The translations under genes and the position numbers were made by a program. A stretch of 64,000 nt of DNA, from positions 992,001-1,056,000 of the forward strand of contig JAPWDM010000001.1 of the NCBI GenBank assembly GCA_035578155.1. The letters run 5' to 3'. Source of the stretch: Brachynemurus nebulosus. Its lineage: Eukaryota; Arthropoda; Insecta; Neuroptera; Myrmeleontidae. Positions 1,336 to 53,791 of this stretch are shown piece after piece. The notes under the pieces were generated by a model. The model was not told the origin of the DNA. It ran no database searches and saw nothing but the letters and a program-made list of their open reading frames with translations. Each line of letters starts with the position of its first letter. The stretch's first letter is position 1.

Positions 1336-1573
1336 ACGTAAAAGCCCCCCATTATGGAACGGTATCTAATACTGGAACAGTTTTGACATTTACATATTAA
1401 TGAAGTTATTTCTGAAAGAAACGTCTGATAACAAAAATTATTATTAATAGAATGATTGTTTTTCAATTTAAATTCACCTCGCATTTAAAGTTCCCTCACT
1501 TAATTAAAGAAATAAATATGTAAATGTCAAAACTGTTCCAGTATTAGATACCGTTCCATAATGGCTTTTACGT
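1336..1573. mobile_element. TA-flanked MITE, copy A (GGAAC-motif family)
   Basis: A 238-bp element bounded by TA at 1334-1335 and 1574-1575. Its termini are inverted repeats of about 60 bp starting ACGTAAAAGCC. Each terminus contains two related words, TATGGAACGG and TACTGGAACAG. The interior is AT-rich and non-coding. It is the same element as 17032-17271 in inverse orientation, and shares its core with the longer element at 10266-10800. No transposase is present, so it must be mobilised in trans. Confidence 0.9.
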
Positions 1574-2939: not shown

Positions 2940-5165
2940 GGGAGGATCACTAGTGTGACATTTTGAAAAAATTGGATTTTTTGGCACGTTTTGATAGTCT
3001 ATACTTTTAAAAATAACATACTAAAATTTCAAGTGCGTATCTCAAATAGTTTTTGAGTTCCAGCCATCTGAAGACCGAATTCTGATTTTCATTGTCAACT
3101 TTGAGGTATTGAGAAACGTGTGAAGATTAATAGTTCGGGAGTTTTTGGATGTGGCTGCCAGTTACATGTTGTGGAGCAGCGAGACCCTGGCAAATTTAAA
3201 CGACGCAATCTAGTTTTATTATGACCTTTATAGTGAATACATCATAAATAATTTTAGTAAAAATTCTCTGTGATTAAAACCAGTGGAGACACACTCTTCC
3301 TGGGGAGACACAGTCTCTTTTACCATATTTAAATAGACTTATTTTGTATCTATTTTTATTTTGATCACTAATCAACTTTATTAAAGCTTTTTTATTGTAA
3401 CAAGACATTCTGATCCTGGACTTCGACTGTAAAACAAAAATATTGAAATTTTTGACCAGACATTTGTAATTGTTGTACCAAGAGCAAAAGATGCTGGAAT
3501 TTTTTTGTATTGTGATTGGTCTGAATTAAACATATAAAGGTCTTCAAAAAATTAGAGATTTTAAAATAACTCTAGTTATAAACTTAGTTATTTAGGTAGT
3601 GTTTAAATATATTTTAATCTAAGGTAGTGCTCATTTAAAATATTCATCAGAATTTTACTAATTGTAAGTAATTAAAAGGGGAAAGATTAAACTTCATAAA
3701 TAAAAAATTTAAATAGATATTGGAGAAAAACAAATTAAAAATAAATACACATTTTAATAAAAAGTTATAAAAAATAAACAACAAAATCTAAAATTAATTA
3801 TATTGATAAATTTAATATTAAAATTAAATCATAAATTTGATATTAAAATTAAAAAACTGAACTAAACCGAAGGACAATAGTCTATTAACACAAGATCAAA
3901 AATATTATTGAATTTCACCATTTCACAGACTGTTAGTACGTGTACGTATGTAGTACCAAATACGTATACATATAGATATTAGTACTGAAGACAAAACTCA
4001 AAATGTTTCCCTTGAATAATTGTTTCAGGTTTTTTTATTATTATTAAAAAATACTGATTATATTTTAGTGATTTTTGTACTGTTAGGAAGATTACTACAT
4101 TTTACATAGAGATTAAAAATTTTTTGCAAATTTTTTCTTAGTTTTTGAGTTATAATGGTGTAAATATGCTTACTGGAGAAGATTTGCATACATGTAATGA
4201 TATAAATTATGTCAGTGTGTGTGCGGATGTATAAAAATGGGATGTTTGTTACGCATCCACACAAAGCCAGAAGAATCAAATTGAAGATTGTCTACTTCGT
4301 TTGAATGGCATGTACTTCCGTATTATTCATTCTCTCAACCACATACACATATAAGCTTATACTTATCATGTATTGTATACATATACATATATATTATTGT
4401 AAACGTCTCTAAACGTATGCATATTGGATACCCGTAAAAGTATTTTAAGTACGTTTTATTTGGGAATGTGAATGTATGAAAATAGACAATATTATTGTAT
4501 AAATTTCATAATTATTTTAAATTTTATAAAAAATTTTGAATTTTGTGAAGGTTAATTTTTTGGGGAGACACTGTCTCTCTTGTCTACTCTCACGCGTCGT
4601 TACTGATTAAAACTAAAAGGTAAGATAAAGGAAAACTACATTTTTCAAATTTACTGCAGTTATAACTCAAAGATAAATCATCCGATCAATTTGATTATTA
4701 CTGCGGCTTCTTTTATATATGTTTCTTCGTGCCATGAACCTCCAGTTTTCCGATCGAATGAAAAATATAATTTTCGCAGGCCCAAAATCATCAAATTTTC
4801 GAGCAAAATTTGAAACTTTTTTTAAAAAAAATTCCGCCATTTTGTTAAATTTCAACTTTTTTTTTCGATTGAGGTTCACGGCACGGGCAATACCATCTAG
4901 TTTAATAGGCTTTTTGGTTTTTTTGATTTCAGGTACTGTGAATGTCGCTATCACTGCAGCAGTGGGGGAACTTTTTTTTGGAACCTTGGGAGATCGCGAA
5001 TAACTTACTGAATTTTCAATTTTTTGGTACAAAAATTTTATCATGAATTTATTATTATATCATCGAAAATATCCTTAAAATATTAAAACATTCGATGCAG
5101 TAGTATTCTTTAAAACAATTCTCAAAAATCACCTTTTTTCAGACGGTTACACTAGTGGTCCCCCT
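2940..5165. mobile_element. TIR element (GGGAGG/AGGGGG ends) carrying a nested hAT
   Basis: The left end GGGAGGATCACTAGTGT and the right end, read on the opposite strand as AGGGGGACCACTAGTGT, form an imperfect terminal inverted repeat that continues into an A-run (GAAAAA) on both sides. TA dinucleotides flank both ends (2938-2939, 5166-5167). Without the nested 1.3-kb hAT the element is about 0.9 kb. The open frame of about 125 codons at 4667-5044 is low-complexity and shadows the opposite strand. I do not regard it as a gene. Confidence 0.7.
3281..4605. mobile_element. hAT-type non-autonomous transposon, nested
   Basis: The element starts CAGTGGAGAC and ends GTTACTG. It is flanked by an exact 8-bp direct repeat ATTAAAAC (3273-3280 and 4606-4613). 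An 8-bp target duplication with CAGT termini is diagnostic of the hAT superfamily. Both subterminal regions contain GGGGAGACAC followed by GTCTC. No transposase reading frame survives; the interior is very AT-rich. It interrupts the TIR element at 2940-5165. Confidence 0.9.
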
Positions 5166-10265: not shown

Positions 10266-10800
10266 AGATAAAAGCCCCTATACCGGAACACTATTTTTAG
10301 GTGTGTAATTGACTTATAAAAATTGACAAATAAATTAAACACCCATTTTTGTTTTTCAATTTTTTTAATCCAATGAATATGTTTTTAAAAAAACGCAACC
10401 CAAATTTTTTTATTTATTAATGTTTTTTTTACAAAATGTCAACATCTATATCCAAACAAAGAAATATTAATGATACAAGAAGTTGGGAACCGATATACAA
10501 ACAGACGTGTAATATACTACACCGTTTCCTACTAGACGTCAAAGTAGGAAACATAGAATGGTTTAAGTATCAGACGTTAATAAAGGATCAAAATACTATA
10601 TTCAAAAAAATTGTTTAATATATTTATCTTTAATTAAGTAAGGAAACATTAAATGCGAGGTGAATTTAAATTGAAAAATAATCATTCTATTAATAATAAT
10701 TTTTGTTATCAGAGGTTTCTTTCAGAAACAACTTCATTAATATATAAATGTCAAAACTGTTCGGACATATGATCTCGTTGCGGTATAGGGCCTTTTACGT
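10266..10800 (+). mobile_element. Longer relative of the GGAAC-motif MITE
   Basis: A 535-bp element flanked by TA (10264-10265, 10801-10802). The ends, AGATAAAAGCCCC and GGCCTTTTACGT, are degraded versions of the 240-bp MITE ends. The right part from about 10620 is colinear with 17110-17240, but roughly 300 bp of extra sequence with a 60-residue ORF precede it. The terminal words are TACCGGAACA and TGTTCGGACA. It could be a less deleted ancestor, or a hybrid of two related elements. Confidence 0.8.
10436..10618 (+). CDS. Small ORF inside the 535-bp element, unknown
   Basis: An ATG-started frame of 60 residues that does not resemble the low-complexity frames around it. The peptide begins MSTSISKQRNINDTRSWEP and contains LHRFLLDVKVG and EWFKYQTLIK, a normal-looking mix of charged, aromatic and hydrophobic residues. 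It lies exactly in the part of the 535-bp element that is missing from the two 240-bp MITEs. It may be the amino-terminal stub or a relic of a protein encoded by the parent transposon. I recognise no domain and it may not be expressed. Confidence 0.3.
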   Translation: MSTSISKQRNINDTRSWEPIYKQTCNILHRFLLDVKVGNIEWFKYQTLIKDQNTIFKKIV

Positions 10801-11779: not shown

Positions 11780-13556
11780 AGAGCAATCCACTTTGAAAGA
11801 CTTCCAAGAGAAAGAGCAAGGAATACTTTATAGACCAAGCATTGCAGATTGATGATAAGCTAAGATTTTCACAGTTTTAATCGTACTTGAAACTTTAAAC
11901 GCGTTTTTCTGAAAACTGTGTTTTTCAAATTTTCCTCCATCATATCTCGAGAACGGTTTGACCGATTCACTTGAAATTTATAGGGTAGACTCAGCACATG
12001 TAGACGCATGGAGTGAACTCTAAAAATTCCGAGTACTTATTTATATTTTCTTCGTAACGAAAGATAAAAAAAAAATCATGAAAGTTGAAGCTTTTTTTCA
12101 GAAGTTTGCCAAAAATCAAATTTTTAATATTTTCAAATGATTCTACACTAGCGGAAATAATTAAAGGATCAAAAAAAAAAAAAAAATTCCAAATTTTTAG
12201 CGATTTTTCGAACGGGTGTATCTTCGTGAAAAATGGTCGTATCGGAGTCGTAAGCAAAGCAATTTAAAGCTGAGAGTTTCTAGTTTCGAGATCTTGTGAT
12301 AAAAAAATTTGTAAAGCAACGTATGTGGCACAATCCTAATAAATACACTGAAAAAAAATTTTCGAAATTTTTTCGGTTTTTTTTTTGGTCCACGGACTTG
12401 GAAAAAATCTTTCCGACTTAACCACCATATGTGCCGGATAACTTGTTCATTCAACTTTAATTTGCTTTTTTATAGACTTTTATACGACCACTTCTCTCTG
12501 AGATATCGGACTTTGAATGGAAAAGGATCATTTCGTCTTTGACCATCGATATCTCAGCAACCAATGATCACACAGAAAATTGAACGGGTGTTTTAAAAAC
12601 TCGAATAAATTCTCTACAAGGATTAGCTATTATTTTTTCAGAAAAAAATTTTTTTTGCATACTTTACATGAATTTGAAAAATCAAGAAAAAAAGAGCTTT
12701 TGGTGGCTCTTTGGAAAATCAAGCGCTGAATTAAAAACTTCGAGAAAACCACTAATGTTAAGTGTGCCTTTTACAGTTCAATATACCCACAAAACCCCAC
12801 CGAGTTTCAGTTTAATCCATCCAGCCGTTTTTGAGTTTCATTCGATTGAATTTTTGAAAAAATTACTGGATCATTTTTTTGATTGTAAACTAAATGAAAA
12901 AAAAATTTTCTCAGCTTTTTTCACATTTTTATTAATAACGGTATTTAGATTTATAAAAAAAAAATTTGAATGAACAAGTTATCCAGTCCATATGGTGGTT
13001 AGGTCGGAAAAATTTTTTCCAAGTCCGTGGACCAAAAAAAAACCGAAAAAATTTCGAATTTTTTTTTCAGTGTATTTATTAGGATTGCGCCACACATGTT
13101 GCTTTGAAAATTTTTTTATCATTAGATCTTGCAACTAGAAACTTTCAGCTTTAAATTGCTTTGTTTACGACTCCGATACGACCATTTTTCACGAAGATAC
13201 AGCCGTTCGAAAAATCGCTAAAAATTTGGAATTTTTTTTTTTTGATGCTTTAATTATTTCCGCTAGTGTATTTCATTCGATGCATTTAGGCTTACAGATC
13301 AAAACGCCGTTTCTTCTTCTTTCATATAAGCCAATCAGCCGAAATCGCGGAGGAAGTGAGAGTCCTTTTTTTCAAGGTGGATGTCTTCCGAGTGGTACAG
13401 CTTACGTTCTAATTATTTTTACTTAAAATTGGTTTCACATACTCTTGAAATGTAGTAAATAAGTGATAAAAAACTCAAAAATTTATCTTTTCATTGGTCG
13501 TCAAAAAAATTCCCAAAAAATGCTTAAAAAACCGGGCGTCACACGGGGGAACCCCT
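11780..13556 (+). repeat. Inverted-repeat element interrupted by a foldback insertion
   Basis: The two outer parts (11780-12145 and 13269-13556) are colinear with the uninterrupted element at 55300-55970 (words CCACTTTGAAAGACTTC, CCTCCATCATATCTC, GGTTTGACCGATTCACTTG, TTTAGGCTTACAGAT, GCCAATCAGCC). The middle is the foldback element 12146-13268. The left terminus is degraded; the right end reads GGGCGTCACACGGGGGAACC. There is no coding frame. Confidence 0.85.
12146..13268. mobile_element. Long-TIR foldback element (CACTA-R family), complete copy 2
   Basis: A 1123-bp element starting CACTAGCGGAAATAATTAAA and ending TTATTTCCGCTAGTG, flanked by TA (12144-12145, 13269-13270). The inverted repeats span about 300 bp per arm and include AGCGATTTTTCGAACGG, TGGTCGTATCGGAGTCGTAA, TGTATTTATTAGGATTG-like and GGTCCACGGACTTGG segments. 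The uninterrupted paralogue at 55672-55673 shows a single TA, confirming target duplication. A shorter copy is at 6337-7210 and a diverged right part at about 62090-62536. No transposase is encoded. Confidence 0.95.
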
Positions 13557-16023: not shown

Positions 16024-16888
16024 GGGGAGACCGGGGTAATAAGAGACAAGGTCGAAAAACCACCAGTAATTCAAGATCAGCTATAGCTTGCTGATAAGTT
16101 TGTAATAGTTTTTGAATCTTCTTTAGTCAATTAAAAAAAACTTTGCATTTGAATTAGGTTTAAAGTTCATGATTTCTCACTGTTTTCCTTTTTTTTCCTG
16201 TTATTGTATTAAGTTTTTGAATGTGTTTGATATGTAACTTGTTTACGAAAAGCATGACAAATAATAAACAATTATTGAAAATTTTAAAAACCTTCTTAAT
16301 AACTGGACTCTACTCTTGTCTCTTATTACCTCATGTCTAAATTTTCACGAAGTGTTAACTTTAACTTTGTTTTTGAATAATTAAAAAAATTTCGTATCTA
16401 TCTCAAATTTTTTTGTCATGTATCAGACTTGTTTCTGGTCCATATAGATTGTACAAAATAACAAGAAAGTAAAGTTTTTATTAACTGGTATTAAATATTA
16501 ATACAAACGAATTTCAGAAACCAAGTTTCGAAACTTTTTTTTTTAACCTAAGATATTTTGAGAACGGCTGTAAGTATTTGTAAGTAAAAAGATTTGGTTG
16601 ATTCAGAATTTTCTTTAGGTATCTGCTATTACTTCAATTTATTTTACATTAGTTTATATGGGCAGCTGGAGGCGTTGTCTCTCATTACCCCAGCAGAGGA
16701 TATAAGAGACAAGGATTTTTTCAAATATTAAAATATTTTTTTTACCTTTAATTTTATTTTAATAGTTACAAAAAAATAATTCAGATACGTTCATTTAATT
16801 TACTAAGTATGTAGTATTTTTTTCATAATGATTAGATTTGTAATTTAGAGTTAAATAATTTTTTGTCTCTTATTACCCCGGTTTCTCC
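16024..16888. mobile_element. TA-element with iterated GGTAATAAGAGACAA motif
   Basis: An 865-bp element flanked by TA (16022-16023, 16889-16890). The ends are GGGGAGACCGGGGTAATAAG and its imperfect complement TTATTACCCCGGTTTCTCC. The core word, read as GTCTCTTATTACC or its complement, recurs internally near 16317, 16677 and 16698 as well as at both ends. The interior is AT-rich and non-coding. It resembles the elements at 19052, 19205, 27087 and 52973 in plan but not in sequence. Confidence 0.9.
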
Positions 16889-17031
16889 TATTTCTAATTT
16901 GATTTCTAAATAAGTGTACTAAACAGTGCGCATATCGTGATTTTTGGAGTATGAGTGTAGGTATTGATCACTTTGTTTTCAGTAAAAGACATATTACACA
17001 TAATAGTTAGTAGGGAATGTTATTTAAAGTA

Positions 17032-17271
17032 ACGTAAAAGCCCCCATCATGGAACGGTATCTAATACTGGAGTAGTTTTGGCATTTACATATTTATTTCT
17101 TTAATTAAGTAAGAAAACATTAAATGTGAGGTGTATTTAAATTGAAAAACAATCATTCTATTAATAATAATTTTTGTTATCAGACGTTTCTTTCAGAAAT
17201 AACTTCATTAATATGTAAATGTCAAAACTGTTCCAGTATTAGATACCGTTCCATAATGGGGGCTTTTACGT
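17032..17271. mobile_element. TA-flanked MITE, copy C (GGAAC-motif family)
   Basis: A 240-bp element flanked by TA (17030-17031, 17272-17273) with long inverted ends ACGTAAAAGCCCCCATCATG and CATAATGGGGGCTTTTACGT. It is the inverse-orientation twin of 1336-1573 and very similar to it, so the two are relatively recent. Confidence 0.92.
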
Positions 17272-17273
17272 TA

Positions 17274-17570
17274 TGTAACATTTTCTTGTCTATTTTAAGT
17301 AGACAGATTCCATTTTCTTCGCAATTCTTTATTCAGCCGAATAGTTTTTCAATATGCAGTATTCATTCAACCGAATAGGCTAAATACTGAACAGTTATCG
17401 AATATTTACTACAAGCCCTAAATATTATATCAAGGGTTTACTAAATTCTATTTATTTTTCTTCTATATTTTTATGGAAATTCAGGGGTGAATAAAATTTA
17501 ATAACACACATCTACATAACATATAGTACAAATCTACGCACATATATATATATACAAAAAAAAAGTTATT
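17274..17570. other. Intron side, 3' of the minus-strand exon
   Basis: A TTGTTGAATACCGAATTCGACT-type word at 15630 and GCCGAATAGTTTTTC...CCGAATAGGC at 17337-17378 suggest small diverged repeats here. By position it is the beginning of the intron downstream of the exon ending at 17573 (minus strand). A short ATATATATAT run lies at 17541-17553. Confidence 0.4.
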
Positions 17571-17575
17571 ACCTG
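17569..17575 (-). other. Splice donor of the minus-strand exon
   Basis: On the minus strand the sequence is GTACAG|GTAATAAC, a strong match to the eukaryotic donor consensus, placed where the protein-like sequence ends. Confidence 0.8.
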
Positions 17576-18396
17576 TACTTTTCCAACAGGTGGCGACACC
17601 ACTAGGAAAATTCTCATGGTTGCCTTGAGAAAATCGTCCCTATTAATTTTGTGATGTTCATCGCGTGTCAGATGACTACTTGTATCACTACAACTAGTGT
17701 TAATAATGTGTGTACTGTCATCACTACTGTCTACTTTGGATTTGGACAAAGTTGCTAACGGTGTGGACGCGTCTCTAGATGATTGCTTGCAAGTGAAACT
17801 ATTTGATTTTGTGCCACTAGACTTTAACGTGTCCTTCATTTTGGTAAGTATCTCACTTTTTTTATGAACAGTTTTTGTTGATGATGACGGTTGTTCGATG
17901 GTTGTTATTGCATTACCGCCACCGGTTGCAGTGTCTTTACTTTTACTACTACTGAAACTTTTAAAGAAATCGGTTTTACGTGACGTGAATTCAACATTTT
18001 TCGTTTTGTCTTTTAAACTTTTAAAAAATTCGGTACGTGATTCATTTGTCGGTGAACTTTTGCGGCTATCTACAACACTTTCCGTTTTCGATGTCACTGA
18101 ACTTAACAATTGATAGTTTTCTTTGCTTTTCTCGCGTCGCAGGAAAGCGTGTGTCAGGGAACCTTTACGTGAAATAGACATTGATGCGTGCTGTGCCGTT
18201 GGCGAGGACTGTTGCGGGGACGTATCATTAGCCGTGGTAGTAGTGGTGGTTGTCTGTAAGACATTCGAACCCTCTGTCGAACTGCCTGATGCATGACGCT
18301 GCACGCGACGTCGGATTGAACCTACCAACCGACGCCACTCGTATGGTTGCTCGGACGCCGACGTCGTTTGTTGGGTGGTAATGGTGATTTTTGTTA
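17573..18396 (-). CDS. Exon of an unidentified Ser/Thr/Lys-rich protein
   Basis: This is the only convincing host coding segment in the window. The open frame on the minus strand runs from the stop at 18404-18406 down to a CAG|GTAATA donor (exon end 17573, phase 0); reading past the donor gives only low-complexity AT codons and a stop. Codon and base composition are much less AT-biased than the surroundings. The peptide contains PYEWRRLVGSIRRRVQR near its start, a poly-Thr stretch, many SxK/SxR phosphorylation-like sites, two FFKS repeats, and an aliphatic C-terminal block LKATMRIFLVVSPPVGKVQ. No ATG is in frame before codon 50 of the TTG-started frame (MSISRKG, ATG at 18179-18181). So it is either an internal exon with an acceptor somewhere at 18350-18396, or a first exon starting at MSISRKG. 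The conserved look of the residues upstream of that ATG favours an internal exon. I do not recognise the gene. Confidence 0.8.
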
Positions 18397-18406
18397 CTTT
18401 TGTTCA

Positions 18407-19049
18407 ATTTATAATACGGACGACACTACTAATTAAGTAATTATCAATAAAGAAACGTTGTAAATCACTTAGACTTTTATCCCATTCCATTTGGTCGTGT
18501 TCCAGTTAAAAAATTACATATGTATATTACTGAATTATTTATTAACACGTATTAAATTAAAAGTAATTGTTTCTTCCATCAGTTTTAACACACTTTTTTT
18601 TATCTTCTCATTTCATTTTAAACGAAACATACATTAAATCAAATGTCTTTCAATTCAGAAATTTTAAAGTCAACATAATTGTCTATTCATTACATAAATG
18701 TATTCAAACAATTAACTTAATCACGTATATCTCTATTTACATGTATGTGATAACTTTAATAAGTAAAATTTCGTTGTCTTCAAGTATAATTGGAAAAGTT
18801 TCACTAAAAGTAAAATTTTATATATATAATTAATTCTCTTAAAAACGGTAAATACGGGAATTCATTTTAATTAATTAAAATTTCCAATTCAAAACAGACA
18901 AATACTGATAATTAAATGCCTTATATGTAGACAGACCTATTAAGCCATTGAGTTGTACAGCTTACAGTATTGTCTTTATGTTGGGGAAAAAAATAAATTC
19001 TAAATTTAGTTACATGCATACACGTATTCATCGATCCTTTTTTTTAATG
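18407..19049. other. No gene recognised
   Basis: AT-rich sequence upstream of the minus-strand exon, presumably intron or 5' flank. No convincing coding frame. An ATTATAAATT word at about 18408-18417 (minus) is TATA-like but not supported by anything else. Confidence 0.5.
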
Positions 19050-19051
19050 TA

Positions 19052-21269
19052 CCGTAAACACGAGTTACTTGAGCCCTAAGGTGTAACTTGAGCCCAAAAT
19101 GGAAAAGGTATTATTTTTTGTTTTGTGCTTAGTGTAACCAGTAGTAAAAGTAAGTTACAGGTTTATCTGATAGGTACTAGGTTCACTGTGTTTATGTTTA
19201 GGTACCATCAGTTGGGCCGAATCTGGACAGTAGGGGCGAATCTAGACAGAGTTGCCTCTCGATATTTCTTCGTCAGTGTTATAACTGTACAAGGTCATAG
19301 ATCAATTCATGCTACTGAATTTTGTCAGTTATGAGTTAGTCATCAGAGAAAAGCGGTGAACGTGATATCTTTGTAATTTGTTATTTTACAGGCGCCTTGT
19401 TTATAATTTTAAAAAAATAACGCGCGTTTTGAAATCTTATAAAAAATTGCTGTACAAAAAAAAAAACAAAAAAAAACAGTTATATATATAAAGTAGGGAC
19501 TGCCAACAAAATGTTTGGCGTTTTTTTGACAATATATGTACCAAAAATGAAAGCTGTATTGTGCTTAATTTTTTTTATAAATTGTCTATAGGTGAGGCGA
19601 ATTCATACATCATGGTGGGTCAATATAAAAAAAAGAAAGTGGGTATACACTACATAAACTGTAATCTAGATAACATAAAATGGGCTCTTTTCGACAGACG
19701 CGCAACAACCGGGGAGGTCCAAGAGGTCCGGACCCCCTAAAATTACCTGGAAATTTTCCTTCAATTTATTTTATTTATATAAAAACGTAAAATTTTTAGT
19801 GGTTTATTAATATTTTTTATTTGAAAATCAAATTTTCGGAGACGACATTTTATTACAACATTTTTTATTGTTATCGGAGAACTGCGTTATAAAAAAATTT
19901 GATAATTTAAATTTTTGTTGGACCCCCTGTAGATATGTAGTTGTTGCACCCCTGCTTTCCGATATTAAAAATAAAGTAAAATCGCTCAGACAAGCTGCTG
20001 AATATTTCCATGTTCCCAAATAGACCTTGCATGTTAGACTCAAAGGCAAACCGAAATAAAATTCATTTAAATCCAAAATGTTTTCTTCCACCCATCAAAA
20101 GTCATTCACTGATGCAGTTATTTATCTTAGCGAACTTCCAGATTGGAAATTTAGCTATTTTTATCTTTTTATGTCCCATTTTACCCATATGCATGACTGA
20201 ATTTGATTTATATTGCAAATAAAGCACTGTCCAGATTCGCCCCACATATAGGGACGAATCTAGACGCTATATAACCAAAAAAGAAAAAGAAAAATGTTGC
20301 AGTACCAATTTTGATATTTTTATTACTGCCCCATACGCTCGTTATATTAAAGCGTTTAAATTATTTTTTTTTAGAATTTTTTAGATAAACTCTAAAGAAT
20401 TTACTGAAAAAAATTGAAAAAATCGTCCAGACTCGCTCCAAATGACGGTAGTTCTGAAAATTGACACTAGGTGTCAGGCTAGTGTTGTTTACCTCTATTT
20501 GAAGTTGCTGTTTCTGTTATGTTGCTAACTTTCAACTGTAAAAAATATTTCGATAGCTCACAAAGTAAGGTAAGTGTATAATTTTCATATTTGCTTCGTT
20601 ACTAAAGCAAATTCAGACATATTCATACGCCAGGCCAAGTATTTACTTACTTTCTTAATTTAAAGATTTAATAAACCAGTTAACGTAATCTTCGGATTAG
20701 GGTAACTTGAGTCCATTATAACTTTGGTATAAAATGATACATGGATCCAATTAAAAAGGCATAGAAGTGGTCCAAGAAGAAGGACGTATTGTACTATAAA
20801 TGGGAAAATATAGTTAAGAAAATACCTCCACCTACACTAATCAAAAAAGAATTATTCTCTTTAGGTAGACTAAAAGATACACTCTAAATCATAAAAATAA
20901 TTTGGTATCCATAACAATTTTTGCTTGAACATTTTATTCAGTTTTGGTACCTATTCATATTTTTTTAATAAATACATGTTTGTACAATGTGTTTTAGTTA
21001 GTAACCAACATCTTGCATGGTCTCAAATTGTTGTCAAATGGAAATCACTTGGAAATTTAGGTTTGGGCTCAAGTAACCCGATCTTGAAGTTAACTTGAAC
21101 CGAAATTTAAAAGCTTATAAAATTTATGAACCATCAGAACAAAATTACCGTAGTCATATACAGATTAATATAATGAATTCTCTATCCCAAATAAATATAA
21201 CAGTTACGCGAAATTTTTAAAATTATCAGATGAGTTGCAAATCTGGGCTCAAGTAATCCGTGTTTACGG
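19052..21269. mobile_element. TA-element with iterated GTTACTTGAGCCC motif, interrupted
   Basis: The ends CCGTAAACACGAGTTACTTG and its complement (right end ...AAGTAATCCGTGTTTACGG) match over about 25 bp with two mismatches, flanked by TA (19050-19051, 21270-21271). The core word GTAACTTGAGCCC or its complement recurs near 19083, 20702, 21064 and 21091. Removing the nested element (19205-20448 plus one TA) leaves about 970 bp. No reading frame encodes a transposase. Confidence 0.92.
19205..20448. mobile_element. TA-element with iterated GAATCTGGAC motif, nested
   Basis: A 1244-bp element flanked by TA (19203-19204, 20449-20450), with ends CCATCAGTTGGGCCGAATCT and CAGACTCGCTCCAAATGACGG (imperfect inverted repeats). 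The word GGGGCGAATCTAGACAG follows 15 bp after the left end, and CAGATTCGCCCC and GGGACGAATCTAGACG occur at about 20231-20270 near the right end. A truncated second copy is on the minus strand at 60333-60952. The segment 19680-19960 contains CAACAACCGGGG and GGACCCCCT-like words also present in that copy, so it belongs to the element. No transposase is present. Confidence 0.92.
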
Positions 21270-21553
21270 TATTTAATTAAATATAGCTAAAAGGATGGGA
21301 TGAAACTTAATTGTTCGTAAATGTGAAAAAGATCATGTTACAAATTATAGGTCAGTAGGTAACGTTTTATAACTGAATCATCATAAAATGTAGGTCATTG
21401 GCTATCATTTCATAATTTGGCATAAGAATGTTATTTTAATGTTGTTTGTTATTTACTGATGATGATAATAACAGGTTTTGCCTAAAAGTGGGAGCACACT
21501 TTTTATTTAGCCCAAAAATTATATTCGAGATTCATAATGTCTATTTCTTTGCA

Positions 21554-21697
21554 GGGTCTGCGGGTGCATCAACCTACGCACTGATTTTCAGTGGGTTATT
21601 GTGTAGCAACCAAGTTTGTTCAGCGGTTACCGTACGTAAAAAGCCAACTTCGTTGATGAAGTCAATTAGACTTTTCCGTTTCCGAACGATACTATAA
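21554..21697 (+). CDS. Possible exon or retroelement patch, weak
   Basis: A GC-richer island preceded by TCTATTTCTTTGCAG, which looks like a splice acceptor with a pyrimidine tract. After it the + frame reads about 48 residues (GSAGASTYALIFSGLL, then CSAVTVRKKPTSLMKS) to a TAA. The minus strand of the same patch is also nearly open (with FINEVGFLRTVTAEQTW), so strand and nature are uncertain. It could be a terminal exon or an eroded mobile-element fragment. No domain is recognised. Confidence 0.25.
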   Translation, partial: GSAGASTYALIFSGLLCSNQVCSAVTVRKKPTSLMKSIRLFRFRTIL

Positions 21698-21699
21698 CG

Positions 21700-22301
21700 T
21701 TTTTAATAGTTGTTTGTGAACGATGTGTTCCTTTCAAACCTCATTTTTTAAATAATAATTTGGGACACTATTTTTTCTATATTATTAAAAAAAATAAAAT
21801 AAAATAAAACATCTAAATCATTTTCTACCTAACTCATTTATGGTTAGTTATTGACCAACTTACAAACACTTCAAAACAGTATATTAAATTGTATTTTAAA
21901 TATATTTCAACAGCAATTTGAGTGAAAAATCGTTTAATTGCAATATAACGTGTTTAATGTTCAATAACAATATGATTTTACGATTAGGCACTATTTTTTA
22001 TTTTAAAAAAATGAAATTAACAATAAATCAAATATGCGACAAAGTAATTAATTTCAAATTTTAAATTTATTTTATATAGTCATATATACTTTAGTGTTTT
22101 TATATTACACACATATCTAAAAAATAATAATAATAATTTAACAGTAATTAAGCTTCTCGTTTTTAATTTATTTGAACGTGAATTATAGTGAACGTGTAAG
22201 CTCTACTCTCACTTAACCGATTTGAATAAATTAACTATTTTAAAGTGAAACAGTAATTTTCTGGAGCTAAAAATTGTCAGTACTGTTACTGTTCAGAGAA
22301 C
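21700..22301. other. No gene recognised
   Basis: Very AT-rich spacer. Confidence 0.5.
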
Positions 22302-22309
22302 TACTTTTA

Positions 22310-22624
22310 TTAAAGATGCGGCAAATATCAAAATATTCGTGAATGCGAATGTCAATATATATTTCCGATATTTGCGAATGGAAATATCCGCGTACAAACC
22401 GGACAGGTCGCGCATGTCCACTTGTTTAGACATATATGAAATCAAGTTTTTTTTTTTTGTTTTTGACGACAAAAAGTGTTGGTACTTTAAATTTATCTTT
22501 TTAATGAAATCTATGTCAAAAATATTCATTCTTTTCTGCAAATGCGAATACGAATACAAATTCCCAAAGAAAGGCGAACATTCGCGAATTCGAATGCGAA
22601 TATGAATATTCGTTACATCTCCAG
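22310..22624. mobile_element. hAT MITE built of CGAAT-repeat words
   Basis: A 315-bp element flanked by an exact 8-bp duplication TACTTTTA (22302-22309, 22625-22632). The right end, on the opposite strand, reads CTGGAGATGTAACGAATATT; the left end is the degraded TTAAAGATGCGGCAAATATC. The arms are filled with GCGAATGCGAATA-like words. The 8-bp duplication assigns it to hAT. Confidence 0.88.
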
Positions 22625-22632
22625 TACTTTTA

Positions 22633-23319
22633 GTAAATTATGTAAACTATATAATTAAATATGGGGAGGCAGAAACAAAATATAATTAGAATAAATTAAA
22701 TTAAATTAATAATAACGAAAGTAAATAGCAGTTTTTGAAGAAAGTTACACATTTTGAGAATTAATGAAAGAAGTAGGTGCGCTAATTTTATTTATTTTAT
22801 TTCTTTCAGGATTCTCTTTAATTAGCAAATCATTTAAAAATTTTGTAATACGAATTTTAATTTGTGAAACGAATAGAAATCTTCCATGACCTCGAATAAA
22901 TCTACCATCAAATTTTTCTATATTTTTAAAATAGATATCTCTTGAAGGCATTAGATAAACCTTTTTTCATAAATTCGAATCTACTAGAAAAGTAAAACTA
23001 AGGATTTTACTGAAGAATTGTTACTCGACAATATCTGTTAATATAATATTTTTCAGAAAGTTCGGTGATTTTTTGGTAGCAAGAGTAACAACAATTTTAT
23101 GTATTTCAAAGGTAAGCATCAGTGAAGAAAAGTTTATCGAAATCTTTGTACAAATTTTAAGTTTTAAGTTAACCTGAATTGCCACCAGTGTCTATTGTTA
23201 GTAATTTTTACCATGCAAGAATATTTAACTCAATGTTTAATTACAATTTTTTATCAGATAGCAATATATTTCCAAAATTATATACTTTAGTAATTTACAA
23301 AGAGAACTACTGGAGCTAG
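22633..23319. other. No gene recognised
   Basis: AT-rich spacer without a recognised repeat. Confidence 0.5.
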
Positions 23320-23580
23320 CAAATAAGAAAAATATCATAGAAATTGTAGAAACAAAATAGTTGATTTGGTATTTGGCATGGACATGTACAGAGAGTGAAA
23401 GGACATCGTTTACCTATTTTAATAACTAAATGGACACCTTGTAAAGGCGCAAGAGGAGCCAATCTCGAAATAGTTGGAGTGAATGGATCGCGGATACAAT
23501 GAAATGTCGGAAGTTTGTCGCGGATCAGTGGCAAAAGTCAGAGAAGCGTGGAAAGTGGGAGCCGAATGACGACAAAAGCT
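23320..23580 (+). pseudogene. Relic of a LINE ORF2 C-terminal region
   Basis: On the + strand two reading frames, joined by at least one frameshift, give WHGHVQRVKGHRLPILITKW, then PCKGARG, then SWSEWIADTMKCRKFVADQW and KSEKRGKWEPNDD. The layout W-x-GHVQR...RLP...W-P-x-KG-x-RG...W-S-x-x-IADTM-x-R...QW is the recurrent C-terminal tail downstream of reverse transcriptase in insect non-LTR retrotransposon ORF2 proteins. An upstream TAG interrupts an EIVETK-LIWY stretch that belongs to the same region. There is no reverse transcriptase domain upstream, so this is a short decayed fragment. Confidence 0.65.
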
Positions 23581-26500
23581 GTTATGAACCAACAATAGCG
23601 CAATAATGAAAAAAATTTAAGGATGTTTTTCTCTTTTTAATCGCTGGCATTTTTCAAAAGGAGTAAAACAAAATGTGATAGTGAAAAATGTGGAGCCAGA
23701 GTGAGGATAACATTCAGAGTTTCTATTGCAACTGTATTTTCTAATGATATTTTTTTGATTTAGTTACTTGAAAGTTTATTTAATTTAATTTAATTCGATA
23801 TCTATTTACCTACGTCTATAAGATAAGAAACCTGTCTTATTTGCTTCAAGAAATATTCTTTTTATTGGCATTCCACGAAAAGACTGAACGTGTAATTTAC
23901 CGCTTGTTAATACTCTTTCATTCACTCAACGGAAATTTGATTTCGTTTATAATCTGCACTTTCATTTCCGTCATTATATTTTTTTTCACCTCTCCAGCCT
24001 TCTTCCGATCAACATAAAATATATACAAAAAATGTATATCTTTGCGTACTAGAGAAGCCTCAACATTAAAATTTTTTTTCTATCACCAGTATTAAATTAT
24101 TTTTTAAAAACACTGACCGTAGTTTCTATATTTTATGATGAATTTATTGATGTGACGTTGACACAAACATACGGTGCCTTTTTAAATTAAGTGTCGTTGA
24201 AATGAACGTGGTGTTGAAAGAAGGCGTAATAATAAAACTGAAAAATTGTCATAAAAAGCGAAAAATATAATTCGTGCATTGTTTTTATATCAGTGATTGC
24301 ACGACTGGCAAATGATCGTCACAGTAAAATTTAATTACATGTCATTCCACTACCCTTTTCTCATTTTTATTAAGTTCATTCATTTAATCTTTAGAATATA
24401 GGTATAAGCAAAATAAGTTTGGCTGACCCATTTTTTATGAAAGCCTACTCTTTTGTGTACACAAGCTGGTCAAGTTTTAACGGCGTTCGATCAATCGCCA
24501 CCAATGACAATCGCTGCCAATTTTATGTTTAAGGTCGTTGTAGAGAGGAACTTGTCCGTAAAAATTATTTAAAAAGAAGAGATGTCATTAAGAGCAATAA
24601 AATTTTACAAGTCAGTTTTACACTGGAATAAAATATTAAATGAAATATATCAATTATTTTACAAAAGAAATCTCTCAATGTTTTTATGGTATTACAAAAA
24701 AGATTACAAATTATAACTAATCCATACAAGGAATAAAATTTGGAATTACTTAAACATGGAGTTCAAAAATGTTATCTATCGAGTCCAGGAAGCCGCATTT
24801 TTGCGCCGCATCGAGTCCAGCAAGACAAATTTTGAATTTATTAATGTAAGTATGTGTAACTTCAATTGTGTAGTTATAATTACTAGTTATTACCAAGGAG
24901 AGAAGCTACTACTTCGGAATTATAGATCTGAATTTTTTGTTTTATTGAATTGCTAATTTTATGTAATGTTTTTTTGCGAATTACATTTAGCGTAGAACCA
25001 GTATCCAGTAGGGTTATGTAGGAATTGTTGTTACTGGAGATTACAGTTTACAAATTTACAAAAATTATCTACAGCCGATTAATAATACACTAGAACCGTG
25101 GGTCCTAAATTATGTTTAGCTTTAAATAGAGCTAAATAATACCATAAACACTAAGACACTCAGATTAATAATGAGAAAAAAACTGTCTTTGGCAGTTTCA
25201 GTATTTTAAATAGTTATGAGTAAATTTTTCATTTATTTAATATTTATATTGCTCCATTATTAAACTGGCTCAGAAAATTTTATTTCTTTTACTTTTAATA
25301 AGTGTGGATGTAAACATAGTGGTCAGCTATGAACAATGTACTGGTGGTGATTCTCAACAGTCATACGGCCAGGCTAATGTGTGGGTGACGATTGTCGCAC
25401 ATTTTCAGTTGGTGGCATTTGTCACTGGCAGCGATTGACATAATATATCCTTATTAAAATATCTAGTAATAAGAGAAAAAACATTCTTTGACCATAAGAA
25501 ATTTTTCCTATAATTTATTTGTTCTTAGTTGCTTGAAATGTTCTCTATATATTTTGGCAATTTTTTCCTGATTACTCCTAGTTAAGCATAAAGTTCCCTT
25601 TATGTAATTTGAAATTTGTTTACGCAAACTTTCAGTGTTTACAACAAATATATTTTTATCACATTTTTAACCAAATTTTTCAACTCCAATTGTTTGACAC
25701 TCTATATCCTATTCTAAATTATTTTAATTAAATCACACAACACGAAAATTTTGATAAATAAATAATTGACTATATTTACTGACAGCACAAAATAGTTGTA
25801 ATCCCTATCCTGGATACCATCGTAAAATGCCACGTACAAAAATAATAAAAACAAATTTACAAAATAAGCAGTTGTAAAACCTCTCTTTCATTATCCTTTA
25901 CGACGGTGCCTACGACATTAATTGCGACTACACTTGGGGCCTATATTTAAGTATTACGCAAATGAATGAAAATGGTTTTTAAAGCATCCTAATTAAATTT
26001 TATTTTTCTATAATTAGTGTTGATGAATGATTATAATTATATAATTTTAAAAAAAAGTCATTACAAATTTTTTTAAGGTACATAAATTTTAAATAATTAA
26101 ATTATTTATTAGCTGTTACAAATGTATCTCAGATTTAAAAAAAAAAATCGCCAAGTACGTGTTAGACAGACATTAATTTAGGTTTTCGTAGTCAGTAACC
26201 AGAGTTTCTCACAATTGTCGGGATAAAATATTTCTTAATTTGAACATTTTACTTCACATATGAGTAAAAACTTTCAATAATACGTTTTACAAAATAATAC
26301 CGTTTACTAAATCAAGTCCGACACTGACTATGTGTCTGGAAAAGTGTCCAAGTGCCAGTAGGCCACCTAGTGCAATTACCGACATCACCGAATCCATAAA
26401 GGATTCTGTGGTAACGATTACGAAGGTATAAAACTCTAGATTTCAATATTTTCATTTTGCACCTCTTTAATTCTCCTTGAAAAAACACTCCTGTTGTAAA

Positions 26501-26739
26501 TTAATACTCATACATAAGTTAAAATACCAAGAGATGAAATTTTAAATGAAAAATTGTTTAATTACTTTTAGTGACAGCAAGTATGCTATAAGTACTTATT
26601 TTCTTTAATAACTCTTTGGTTTCTTGAGTAATATATAAGTATTCAGTCAAAAACGTTAAAAGTAATATTACGATAATAAAATATTTGTACTCCTTTCCCA
26701 CAAAAACGGTTTTCTCTTCTTTTCTTCTGTTTTCTTACT
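23581..26739. other. Long AT-rich stretch, no gene recognised
   Basis: No convincing frame over 3.1 kb. The segment 26130-26250 resembles 2650-2735 (shared GTAGT-CARTAACYAGAGTTT and CACAATTSTCGGRATAAAA words). Two patches at 24440-24530 and 25310-25440 are slightly more GC-rich with words like GGTGGTGATTCTCAAC, but nothing assignable. Confidence 0.5.
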
Positions 26740-28515
26740 AGACCGGTTTTGATCACTTTTATGATCCTCTTCAGTAGTTTTTTCGCTGAAATAAAAAGGC
26801 TATTAATTACGTACCTAAAATAGAAGATATATTAAGAACCTAAAAGAGAAAGAAAATTATGTTCTTAAATAGAAAAGAGAAAAATAGATTATGTACCTAC
26901 AAATCTATGTACAGGTACATAATGATTATGTACAGGTACATAATCTATAGAAGATTATGTACCTGTACAAATTTTTAACGTTTCTTTTTCTTTCAAGTAT
27001 TTTACCTAATTCTCTTTCCTTTTTCAGATACTTAATTTTCTTTTTTGTTTTAGATACTTAATGCATTTTCTCTTCTTTTTTAGGTAGGGGAGAAGTGTGT
27101 CAGTGGTAACAGAAGGTCAATTGTAACTTCAAAATTTGCGAGACATCTATCAATCCTATTAAACAGTATTCCATATCATAAAGTGGCTTCTAAAGTTGTG
27201 CTTTACTGACAAAACTTTCAGTTAATAACATCCGGCGGTTTTCTCTCAGCAATATCAAATGTGTTTATATAAACTAATCGTAAGTTAACAATTTTTTGAT
27301 TTTTGAAGTAAATACCCCATCAGTTGGAAGAAAAGTGATTTTATTGGAAACATAATCAATCAAATAATATTATCAGATAGGTAACATAGCTTTTTTAATC
27401 CTATTTAATATTTTATGAATTTTTTTATAAAATGAAACAGCGGTGGAACAATTGTAACAAATTCAGTAGTGTCGATTGTAACATGTACAACTGACAAAAA
27501 ATTTTAGTTGAACAAAATTAAACTTTATATTTTAAGTATGAATCGGAATAATAAAGGAGCAACACAAATCTTCCATTATTGGGATTAAAAAAATTCTTAC
27601 AATATGCAAAAACTAGGATAGAAACTATATACAATGATGTATATATGAATTCCATTAAAAGAGTAATAGAAAGAGAAAAAATTCAGATCTGTTACCTGAG
27701 ACTATGCTATTTTTTGCCACCTTCTTTACTCAATATGTAAGGAAGAATTTTTAAAACTGGATTAATTATAATAACTAACGTGTAAATTCAACTAAATAAT
27801 GAGTGTTATAGTTGAACCTAAGCCCAGTAACAATTGATTCTCTGTTGGTGACGATTGTAACATTACACTTTGGTCCACATAAATGCAGTTATTTTAAATG
27901 TTAGTCAACGTAGAGTATTTTTGTGCAGCTCATTCAAAAAATGGAAAGAACCCGTATCTTGTACCAAAAATTTAATTCTCTGTGACTAATAAATACAAAG
28001 TTACTAGCCTGTATATTTTTTTTTGTTACTATTGACACACCTCTCCCCTACATAATCTATTTTCTTTTTCCTTTTTAGGCACTTAATTTTCTCTTTTCTA
28101 TTTTAGGTACTTAACTTCCTTTTTCTTTTAGGTACTTAATTCATTTACTCTTCTTTTTTAGGCACTTAATTTTCTTTTTTACGTACTTAATTCATTTTCT
28201 CTTCTTTCTTAGGTACATAATCTATTTCTCTATTCTTTTCTAGGCACTTAATTTTCTCTTTCCTCTTTTAGGTATTTAATTCATTTTCTCTTTTTTTTAG
28301 GTACTTAATTTCCGTTTTCTCTTTTAGGTGCTTAATTAATTCTGTCTTCTTTTTTAGGTACATAATCTATTTTTCTCTTTTCTATTTAGGAACATAATTT
28401 GCTTTCTCTTTTAAGTTCTTAATATATCTTCTACTTTAGGTACGTAATTAATAACCATTTTATTTCAGCAAAAAAACTACTGAAGAGGATCCAAAAGTGA
28501 TCGAAACCGGTCATT
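26740..28515. repeat. Minisatellite bounded by inverted hairpin ends, interrupted
   Basis: Left GACCGGTTTTGATCACTTTT...CTCTTCAGTAG and right CTACTGAAGAGGATCC...GATCGAAACCGGTC are inverted copies. Between them is a minisatellite of about 22-30 bp with the theme TTTAGGTACTTAATTTTCTCTT (variants GGTACATAAT, GGCACTTAAT, GGTATTTAAT), mostly T/A-rich at 28050-28450 and in complementary orientation at 26800-26950. The array is split by the transposon at 27087-28048. The bounding word CTGAAGAGGATC-GTGATC-GAAACCGGTC has a small stem-loop followed by GAAA, like a hammerhead-ribozyme core. Confidence 0.7.
27087..28048. mobile_element. TA-element with iterated CAATTGTAAC motif, inside minisatellite
   Basis: A 962-bp element flanked by TA (27085-27086, 28049-28050), with ends GGGGAGAAGTGTGTCAGTGG and ATTGACACACCTCTCCCC. 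The word AATTGTAAC or CGATTGTAAC recurs near 27118, 27447, 27474 and 27852, with a complementary form at 27828, in addition to the ends. Excision of the element with one TA restores TTTTTAGGTACATAATCTAT, a perfect unit of the surrounding minisatellite. Non-coding. Confidence 0.92.
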
Positions 28516-32704: not shown

Positions 32705-33461
32705 TAGGGTGAGCCACTTTAATCTATGCATCTAAACATCTCGCCAGAGGTGTCACCTATCAAAAAATGACCTTTACAAAAGTTGTTATGTACAAAGGGG
32801 GACATTAAATTCTGGCCTTAAATTTGACCTTGACCTTCATTCTGAGGTCATTTTGAGGTCAAGTCGTATTTTTCAAATGGAAAGACCTATTTTTTATTTC
32901 GAATTCTGAAAGAGCGTGAAATTTCACGTCGAAAATGCTATGAACGAGTTTTTTTTATTGACCTTTAATTTTTTAGTTTTTATTTAGTTATAAAATTTAC
33001 TAGTTATGAAAAATTAATTTTTCGTAACTTTTTAGAGTCATTTTTTTCTGGATTTTGAGCTTAAAATGACCTTCAAAGGTCATTAAAAACGAACAGAAGC
33101 TCCTATTTTACGTCTCCAAAAGATGCCGACACTTTAAAGTTAGGTTTTTCCTTTAAAATCTAATTTTTTATTGTTCTTTGTTGGCCTTTACACCTCTTTA
33201 GGACAATAATAAAAAAGTCCTGTGTAGCATTTTCGACGTGAAATTTCACGCTCTTTCAGAATTTGAAATAAAATATAGGTCTTTCCATTTGAAAAATACG
33301 ACTTGACCTCATAATGACCTTGAAAATGAAGGTCAAAGTCAAATTTAAGGTCACCATTTAATGTCCCCCTTCGTACTTAATAACTTTTGTAAAGGTCATT
33401 TTTTGATAGGTGGCACCTCTGGCGAGATATTGAGATGCTTAGATTAAAATGGCCCATCCTG
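32705..33461. mobile_element. Foldback MITE with 240-bp inverted arms
   Basis: Ends TAGGGTGAGCCACTTTAATC and, complementary, GATTAAAATGGCCCATCCTG, flanked by TA (32703-32704, 33462-33463). The arms are almost identical for about 240 bp and include CTCGCCAGAGGTGYCACC, AAAATGACCTTTACAAAAG, GGGGGACATTAAAT, TTTGACCTTGACCTTCAT and GAGCGTGAAATTTCACG. A single-stranded copy would form a very stable hairpin around a loop of about 270 bp. The loop has no coding frame. Confidence 0.95.
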
Positions 33462-52972: not shown

Positions 52973-53791
52973 AAGGGGAGGTTTACTTGAGAGTCGTTAA
53001 AAAAAAATCGATTTTTTTTTCTTTGCAGAAATTGGTAGCTAATTATGTGTAGACATATGTTCCAAAGTGATTTTTCTGAAAGTAATTTAAGAGAAGGTTT
53101 ACTTGAGATTTGATAAAAAAATCAATTTTTTTTTTAACGAAATTGATAGCAAATTATGTGTAAGAATACGTTCCCAAAGTGATTTTACTGAAAATAATTT
53201 AAAAGCAAGATTCTTGCACATTAACCGAATCCAGCTTTCTATAAAAATAAAAATTCAAAAAACGTAGTTCACGCAATAATGAGTATTAAATATAACATTT
53301 TGAAAATACATTTCTTTATATATATTTTATAATATCTCGGGACTACATTTTTGGAACTGGCAGACACGATAACTCAAAAACTATTCGATGGATCCGTTTT
53401 TTAAGTTTTTATTTTAAAGATAATTCAATTCTTCGGCACCTCTACCTAAGTTCGATACACTTTCAAGATTTTTGTTATTTTTAAGTTTACTTTAAAGAAC
53501 GAAAAATAAGATAAAAATCGTAATCAAAAGTTCAAACATCCGCCATTTTTTTTTCTTTCAGAAATTTATTGATATTATACGTAGAGGTGCCGGTACTCTT
53601 CATATATTTTATAAATCTTTTTTGTTTTTGGATTTCGGTGGTTTATTACCGGCGCTTGGATGTCCGCCAACAAGGCATTGGATTTTCGGATCGTCACACT
53701 GCAGTATCTATGAAATGGACAATTTTTTATATTTTTCCTTGATAAATTTGTGTAGTAAAATTTTTAAGGACTCTCGAGTAAACCTCCTCTT
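52973..53791. mobile_element. TIR element with iterated GAGGTTTACTTGAGA motif
   Basis: Left AAGGGGAGGTTTACTTGAGA and right, complementary, TCTCGAGTAAACCTCCTCTT. The motif recurs directly at about 53093 (GAGAAGGTTTACTTGAGATT). The left terminal block of about 115 bp is duplicated in tandem (52978-53090 and 53091-53205, sharing AATTATGTGTA and CAAAGTGATTTT). The left side is preceded by TA; the right is not, so the duplication is unresolved. Non-coding. Confidence 0.8.

What the first reader, a model, noticed from the sequence alone, without database searches (positions are those of the whole stretch)
16024..28048. Six unrelated TA-type TIR families share one 'iterated core motif' architecture
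Elements at 1336/17032, 16024, 19052, 19205, 27087 and 52973 differ in sequence. In each, however, a short word in the terminal inverted repeat (GGAAC, GGTAATAAGAGACAA, GTTACTTGAGCCC, GAATCTGGACAG, CAATTGTAAC, GAGGTTTACTTGAGA) is repeated within tens of bases of the end, and in most cases also inside the element in both orientations. All are about 0.24-1.25 kb, non-coding, five of six with clear TA flanks. Three begin GGGGAG. Iterated transposase-binding sites are my inference; a shared transposase group would be a new unifying description.
Basis: partly seen in the sequence, partly recalled or inferred. Interest (0 to 1): 0.75.

Follow-up and report, generated by a model that had tools for sequence, protein, structure and literature searches.

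The report
Pogo-like mini-transposons with iterated end motifs
Several short, gene-less DNA transposons in this insect-like genome carry a short word from their ends repeated further in, as do protein-coding pogo transposons of the same genome, which suggests that the word is a docking site for the cutting enzyme; this is a tidy, mostly expected pattern, and one of the six elements belongs to a different kind.

Summary
A (16024-16888), B (27087-28048), D (19052-21269) and E (19205-20448) are TA-flanked, non-coding elements; each end is an 11-12-nt tip plus a 12-15-nt core, and only the core recurs inside. E sits inside D. A (153 end matches), B (1,293) and D (417) are genomic families. Core number varies between copies (A 3-9, D 4-6), often with tandem doublets 16-19 bp apart. 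Of 8 distinct pogo transposons with DDE_1 open frames whose ends I found, 7 show the same layout: tip 9-15 nt, core iterated 15-17 bp apart. Best reading: non-autonomous pogo-group (IS630-Tc1-mariner) elements whose cores are transposase-binding sites, an arrangement close to that known for pogo. Exceptions: C (8,662 end matches) lies at TTAA, and its 'iteration' is a 122-bp tandem duplication; F is largely a palindrome with only a doublet. Cores are unrelated except C-D. No transposase with A-E ends was found in what I could fetch, so 'one shared transposase group' is unproven and, for C, unlikely.

The parts
16024..16888 (.). Element A, 865 bp, TA-flanked; tip GGGGAGACCGG + core GGTAATAAGAGACAA; cores at 16035(+), 16316(-), 16675(-), 16698(+), 16863(-)
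   Evidence: family:
16024..16034 (+). A left tip (seen only at the ends)
16035..16049 (+). A left terminal core
16316..16330 (-). A internal core, exact
16675..16689 (-). A internal core, 1 mismatch (exact in consensus)
16698..16712 (+). A internal core, 2 mismatches (1 in consensus)
16863..16877 (-). A right terminal core
19052..21269 (.). Element D, TA-flanked, 972 bp without the nested E; cores at 19064(+), 19083(+), 20702(+), 21065(-), 21245(-); first two 19 bp apart
   Evidence: family:
19205..20448 (.). Element E, 1244 bp, TA-flanked, inserted in D; cores at 19217(+), 19236(+), 20227(-), 20423(-) and a weak one at 20254(+)
   Evidence: empty D site; second copy (left half)
27087..28048 (.). 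Element B, 962 bp, TA-flanked; tip GGGGAGARGTGT + core GTCARTRGTAAC; internal GTCAATTGTAAC-type cores at 27116, 27447, 27471, 27850 (+) and 27827 (-)
   Evidence: family:
52975..53789 (.). Element C, about 815 bp, TTAA-type flank; GGTTTACTTGAGA at 52980(+), 53096(+), 53772(-); 122-bp tandem duplication of the left end
17032..17271 (.). Element F copy 2, 240-bp largely palindromic mini-element, TA-flanked; GGAAC doublet 18 bp apart at each end
1336..1573 (.). Element F copy 1, TA-flanked
10266..10800 (.). Longer relative of F (535 bp): same tip and interior, diverged core region
2940..5165 (.).

Best explanation
A, B, D and E are non-autonomous (MITE-like) relatives of pogo-type cut-and-paste transposons. 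Each end has an outer tip of 11-12 nt next to the TA, presumably handled by the catalytic domain, and a 12-15-nt core, presumably bound by the N-terminal helix-turn-helix domains of the transposase. Extra core copies near the ends (doublets mostly 16-19 bp apart) and further inside, in both orientations, are additional binding sites that can help recruit transposase; without a tip they cannot serve as ends. Shown here: the anatomy, TA flanks, persistence in the A and D families, variable core number, and the same anatomy in pogo elements with DDE_1 open frames of the same genome. Inferred: that cores are bound by a transposase, which transposase it is, and that extra sites raise mobility. F is a weak member of the pattern; C is a separate TTAA-type family that only resembles it.
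For: Tip/core split: internal copies match the terminal pair in the core (0.93 A, 0.80 B, 0.92 D, 0.74 E) but not in the tip (0.20, 0.30, 0.27, 0.47); internal self-similarity apart from the TIR pair is 13-21 bp at the cores, plus a 14-bp palindrome and a 38-bp imperfect inverted pair spanning two facing cores in A. Consensus of 21 A copies has five cores (four exact, one with 1 mismatch) and of 24 D copies five cores at 0-1 mismatch, some closer to the core than the window copy is. End patterns: A 82+71, D 204+213, B 648+645 places, control 0+0 each. TA on both sides in 18 of 22 A and 19 of 24 D loci with well-paired ends (of 30 fetched each). Core number 3-9 in 23 A and 4-6 in 24 D elements; second core near the end in 19 of 46 A ends (15 of these at 16 or 19 bp) and 22 of 48 D ends (21 at 19 bp). 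Pogo yardstick: of 14 DDE_1 loci fetched, ends were found in 10, being 8 distinct elements; first core 9-15 nt from the tip, further cores at +15 to +17 or inverted at offset about 43-62, in 7 of the 8 (L073 was not in the shuffle test); all 10 of the ORFs scanned carry DDE_1 + HTH_Tnp_Tc5, 7 of 10 also CENP-B_N.
Against: No transposase was found between A or B ends in what was fetched: the longest A pair among the 100 listed places (L083, 5.7 kb) and the sampled 1.6-kb middle of a 3.4-kb B pair (L084) hold non-coding repeats; D pairs were not followed. None of the 14 pogo loci bears an A-G end; three weak partial matches lie inside ORFs (L078, L079) or outside the element (L073). The tips differ: pogo mostly CAGT..., A/B GGGGAG..., D/E CCGT/CCAT.... 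Core columns are not more conserved than the rest between copies (0.916 vs 0.936 in A; 0.948 vs 0.964 in D), as expected for neutral decay but no support for function. In the pogo elements cores cluster within 200 bp of the ends (0-1 further hits in 7 of 8), whereas A and D also carry cores further in. L070 does not iterate clearly (3 of 60 shuffles reach its count). G, with a similar GGGGG tip and TA flanks, lacks iteration.
Confidence: 0.7

Rival explanations
1. The families are TA-inserting elements of other IS630-Tc1-mariner lineages (Tc1-like, mariner-like or an undescribed lineage), which evolved iterated binding sites independently of pogo.
For: Tips GGGGAG and CCGT differ from the mostly CAGT tips of the pogo loci of this genome; none of the 14 pogo loci fetched has these ends. 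Multiple binding sites adjacent to TIRs are described as frequent across transposons (PMC3143072, passages).
Against: Similar tip length, core length and doublet spacing to the local pogo elements.
Confidence: 0.22
2. The internal core copies are by-products of rearrangement (tandem duplication, gene conversion, nested ends) and have no role.
For: Extra core units at some A ends look like tandem duplications; C's inner copy is a 122-bp duplication of the end; core columns show no excess conservation.
Against: In A, B, D, E only the core recurs, in both orientations and scattered, without the tip; unrelated families and coding pogo elements share the layout.
Confidence: 0.25
3. All six families are mobilised by one transposase group that recognises one architecture.
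For: GGGGAG tips in A, B, C and a further family seen in L084; C and D cores share TTACTTGAG (11 of 2000 null sets reach the best pair score).
Against: C inserts at TTAA; 14 of 15 core pairs are no more alike than random words; F and G lack internal iteration.
Confidence: 0.08

Closest known systems
pogo superfamily (Tigger/pogoR-type) of IS630-Tc1-mariner transposons
   Same: TA target, short TIR of about 24-26 bp, iterated core near the ends as in 7 of 8 local pogo elements with DDE_1 open frames; TIRs of at most 40 bp are given for most pogo families, and TA as the classical duplication, in PMC7386202 (passages)
   Different: A, B, D, E are non-coding, have GGGGAG or CCGT/CCAT tips instead of CAGT, and carry cores further inside
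Drosophila pogo: transposase recognises a 12-bp sequence in the TIR (Wang, Hartswood and Finnegan 1999; only the title was seen, in reference lists; paper not held)
   Same: a short binding word inside a short TIR
   Different: no binding data here; whether its word is repeated in Drosophila pogo was not checked
Herves (hAT) subterminal CG/AATTCAT motif repeated at both ends (PMC3143072, passages)
   Same: short transposase-binding motif repeated near the ends
   Different: different superfamily; motif subterminal rather than in the TIR core
piggyBac-type TTAA elements (recalled; for C only)
   Same: TTAA at both ends of 19 C pairs within 1.2 kb, my count from the 100 places listed
   Different: no transposase sought or seen; ends start GGGG, unlike the CCC start that I recall for piggyBac

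Membership tests
IS630-Tc1-mariner (incl. pogo), for A, B, D, E | TA target-site duplication | tested here: met
   A 18 of 22, D 19 of 24 loci with TA both sides; E: empty D site with one TA in 5 of 30 D loci; B: window copy only
pogo superfamily, for A, B, D, E | Encoded DDE_1 transposase, or a coding relative with the same ends | tested here: inconclusive
   none found in L083, the middle of the L084 pair, or 14 DDE_1 loci; only the 150 best of 1890 DDE_1 candidates were scored and listed
pogo superfamily, for A, B, D, E | Short TIRs (at most 40 bp in most families) | tested here: met
   24-26 bp of tip + core
pogo-like end layout (tip + iterated core) | Core iterated near the ends as in coding pogo elements of the same genome | tested here: met
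   for A, B, D, E; in A the doublet is present in only some copies; weaker for F; not core-only for C
Passer (pogo lineage with BrkDBD) | BrkDBD-bearing transposases in the genome | tested here: not met
   PF09607: 2 matches from 264 candidates (150 scored), about 1.5 kb apart on one contig
TA-type element, for C | TA target-site duplication | tested here: not met
   window flanks TAAA and TTAA, another copy TTAA at its one visible end; the 100 listed places are all exact TTAA, though the pattern contained TTAA; the control count for other flanks did not complete
piggyBac, for C | TTAA duplication and piggyBac transposase in a parent | tested here: inconclusive
   TTAA seen; no parent sought; TTAA could also be part of the TIR

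The most novel reading that the evidence does not exclude
In pogo-group transposons the ends are modular: a tip shared across families (GGGGAG, CCGT or CAGT class) and a fast-diverging iterated core that grows and shrinks by whole units (3-9 copies in family A), so that mini-elements evolve arrays of binding sites that draw transposase away from its own gene-bearing element.
Probability: 0.25. Interest if true: 0.6.

Novelty: new member of a known kind. Interest (0 to 1): 0.38.

Why it matters
It gives several abundant mini-transposon families a testable mechanism and a sequence signature (tip + iterated core) by which orphan families could be tied to pogo-type transposases. The variable core number within one family would let the effect of binding-site number on copy number be tested directly. 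It also shows that a shared look (GGGGAG start, repeated word) can mislead: family C belongs to a different target class.

Tried and rejected
Transposase remnants in the elements: the longest open frame per element is 47-130 aa; tblastn with 14 local pogo ORFs finds nothing in the window or L083 and only weak matches in the flank of L042. Passer origin: no Passer-like set. Common ancestry of cores: rejected except C-D. Selection on cores seen as conserved columns: not found. Longer A pair L083 and B pair L084 as autonomous parents: non-coding repeats in the parts fetched. Phage, viral and prokaryote collections: A has no match in phages; 1 viral and 7 genome contigs match a 17-base A word exactly and were taken as chance, because I estimate (not computed in a call) that such a word occurs by chance some tens of times in 257 Gb. 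Literature for six of the words themselves: one search found one paper, on THY1, with one word, held to be chance. Papers on iterated or pogo ends. Genome searches wanted but did not complete: the E end pattern and the non-TTAA flank of C. The first iteration test was dropped because low-complexity words inflated its random-segment control and the E and C boundaries were slightly off; one search replaced it.

Full report
What was given. The window is AT-rich DNA (30% G+C) and is placed by the genome tool at C1:992001-1056000 of a 960-Mb assembly in 138 contigs. It holds a LINE whose two best-scoring named relatives are insect proteins (Uroleucon, Ctenocephalides), so I take the host to be an insect (inference).

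The elements. A (16024-16888), B (27087-28048), D (19052-21269), E (19205-20448) and F (1336-1573, 17032-17271) are flanked by TA. E lies inside D: the D locus is 2218 bp with it and 972 bp without; 24 of the 30 fetched D loci have paired ends 956-999 bp apart (three had no pair; the others are 751, 2087 and the window's own 2218 bp), and 5 of 30 pass my ungapped test for the uninterrupted site with a single TA. None is coding: the longest open frame per element is 47-130 aa.

Tip and core. Aligning every copy of each word in register separates an outer tip from an inner core. In A, B, D and E the tip is 11 or 12 nt and the core 12-15 nt. Internal copies reproduce the core (0.93, 0.80, 0.92, 0.74 of columns match one of the two ends) and not the tip (0.20, 0.30, 0.27, 0.47) (in E one weak copy was set in a wrong register there, which lowers its core value; one search places it correctly). 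Self-comparison agrees: apart from the TIR pair the matches are 13-21 bp at the cores, plus a 14-bp palindrome and a 38-bp imperfect inverted pair spanning two facing cores in A. C differs: the second copy is part of a 122-bp, 80% identical tandem duplication of the left end. F is largely palindromic, with a weak second copy 18 bp from the first (internal core match 0.58).

Is it more than chance? Against 200 dinucleotide shuffles, A, D and E are never matched when 30 b are set aside at each end, and B is never matched when 42 b are set aside. With the other setting D (20/200), E (4/200) and A (1/200) weaken, in D and E because the doublet then falls partly into the excluded zone, and B is 125/200. 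C is 11-12 of 200; F has no hit and G is at chance. Random window segments reach the same counts in 1-7 of 150 for the favourable settings and in up to 26 of 150 (A, D, E) or 88 of 150 (B) for the others. Counting core hits against the rest of the window gives Poisson P of 8e-3 (A), 6e-4 (B), 7e-4 (D), 1e-4 (E), 0.06 (C) and 1 (F).

Families. The A element has 233 first-look candidates (40 scored) and the right part of D 1140 (40 scored). End patterns give 153 places for A (up to 2 mismatches), 417 for D (1 mismatch) and 1,293 for B (2 mismatches), each with 0 in the reversed control. Aligned copies of A (21 of 30 loci) and D (24 of 30), kept by length, give consensus sequences with five cores each. 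In A the internal cores are exact at 341 and 700 and have one mismatch at 723; two of the three are better than in the window copy. The A consensus is mixed at one end, where copies differ by a core unit. Core columns are not better conserved than the rest.

Core number is not fixed. Among 23 A elements it ranges from 3 to 9 and among 24 D elements from 4 to 6. A second core close to the first is present at 19 of 46 A ends, mostly 16 or 19 bp further in, and at 22 of 48 D ends, 21 of them 19 bp further in. Some A ends differ from others by a whole extra core unit (L018 and L010 against L021), which looks like tandem duplication or loss of a unit (inference).

A yardstick in the same genome. 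DDE_1 (PF03184) gives 1890 candidates, of which the best 150 were scored and listed. I fetched 14. Ends were found in 10 (nine by scan, L073 by hand) and not in L071, L072, L074, L079; in L081 a further, outer inverted pair exists and I chose the pair with the CAGT start. L076, L077 and L080 are one family by protein identity, leaving 8 distinct elements. All 10 ORFs scanned, two of them (L072, L074) from loci without ends found, carry DDE_1 and HTH_Tnp_Tc5 (partial in L074), and 7 of 10 also CENP-B_N. In 7 of the 8 the terminal core is iterated within 200 bp of the ends, starting 9-15 nt from the tip, with direct copies 15-17 bp further or inverted copies around offset 43-62; L070 is doubtful (L073 was not in the shuffle test, and its left boundary was set 3 b too far; the offset is corrected here). 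So the layout seen in A, B, D and E is the layout of coding pogo elements here. In 7 of these 8 elements almost no core lies deeper than 200 bp from the ends; in A and D some cores do.

How it most likely works. The local pogo proteins carry one or two N-terminal DNA-binding domains and a DDE catalytic domain. I infer that the core is the docking site, that doublets let a transposase or a dimer dock twice, that the tip is the cleavage site, and that internal cores recruit transposase without being cleavable. None of this is shown by a binding or excision experiment.

What does not fit one transposase group. The cores are no more alike than random words in 14 of 15 pairs; C and D share TTACTTGAG. 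Tips fall into GGGGAG (A, B, C and a further family seen in L084), CCGT/CCAT (D, E) and ACGTAAAAG (F) types, against mostly CAGT in the pogo loci. C ends carry TTAA in the listed 100 places, including 19 pairs of ends within 1.2 kb by my count, out of 8,662 places with up to 3 mismatches. Because TTAA was in the pattern, exact matches are listed first, and the control search did not complete, a TTAA duplication is likely but not proven; PMC7386202 also reports TAA and TAAA duplications in Fot and Fot-like pogo elements (passages). No transposase was found between A or B ends: the 5.7-kb A pair and the sampled middle of the 3.4-kb B pair hold related non-coding repeats.

What is known. Pogo elements have TA as the classical duplication and mostly TIRs of at most 40 bp (PMC7386202, passages). 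A 12-bp word in the pogo TIR is recognised by its transposase (Wang et al. 1999, title only, seen in reference lists). [quoted passage not shown] The finding is therefore a set of new members of a known kind. What I did not meet in the listings and passages of the papers searched (open-licence papers only, few opened) is a uniform tip + iterated core layout across many pogo families of one genome and within-family variation in core number; this is not a claim that neither is in print.

Noticed in passing
L084 (G000:C1:217700-219300), about 55-470: Another family with a GGGGAGAGC tip and an iterated core read as GAGGCTAAACCGTACA, two copies about 18 bp apart at the end and more inside.
   Followed up: partly
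window 52975-53789: Element C belongs to a family with 8,662 end matches (up to 3 mismatches), flanked by TTAA in the 100 places listed; about 4,300 elements if all ends pair.
   Followed up: partly
window 10266-10800 against 17032-17271: Two F-type elements share tip and interior while the stretch between them that holds the GGAAC words has diverged, by eye without indels, as if the binding region evolves faster.
   Followed up: no
window 26777-28477: B is inserted in a larger inverted-repeat element made of short TACCTAAAA-type repeats.
   Followed up: no
window 2940-5165: TA-flanked 2.2-kb element (AGGGGGACCACTAGTGTAAC ends) with two direct copies of TGGGGAGACACWGTCTC inside (about 3301 and 4562); a diverged relative lies in L027.
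   Followed up: partly
L023 2448-2849, L057 365-902 and 973-1445, L019 3022-3544: Further short TA-flanked inverted-repeat elements with CAGT-, CAGCT/CAGGT- or CCGT-like tips and repeated end words.
   Followed up: no
L042 712-969: Weak DDE_1-type protein match (E about 4e-4) in the flank of a D copy.
   Followed up: no
window 41821-45531: LINE with endonuclease, reverse transcriptase and RNase H domains; its two best-scoring named relatives are insect proteins.
   Followed up: partly
window 6342-7205, 12146-13268, 32705-33461: Elements with long inverted-repeat arms; the latter two scored only 1-2 internal word matches.
   Followed up: no
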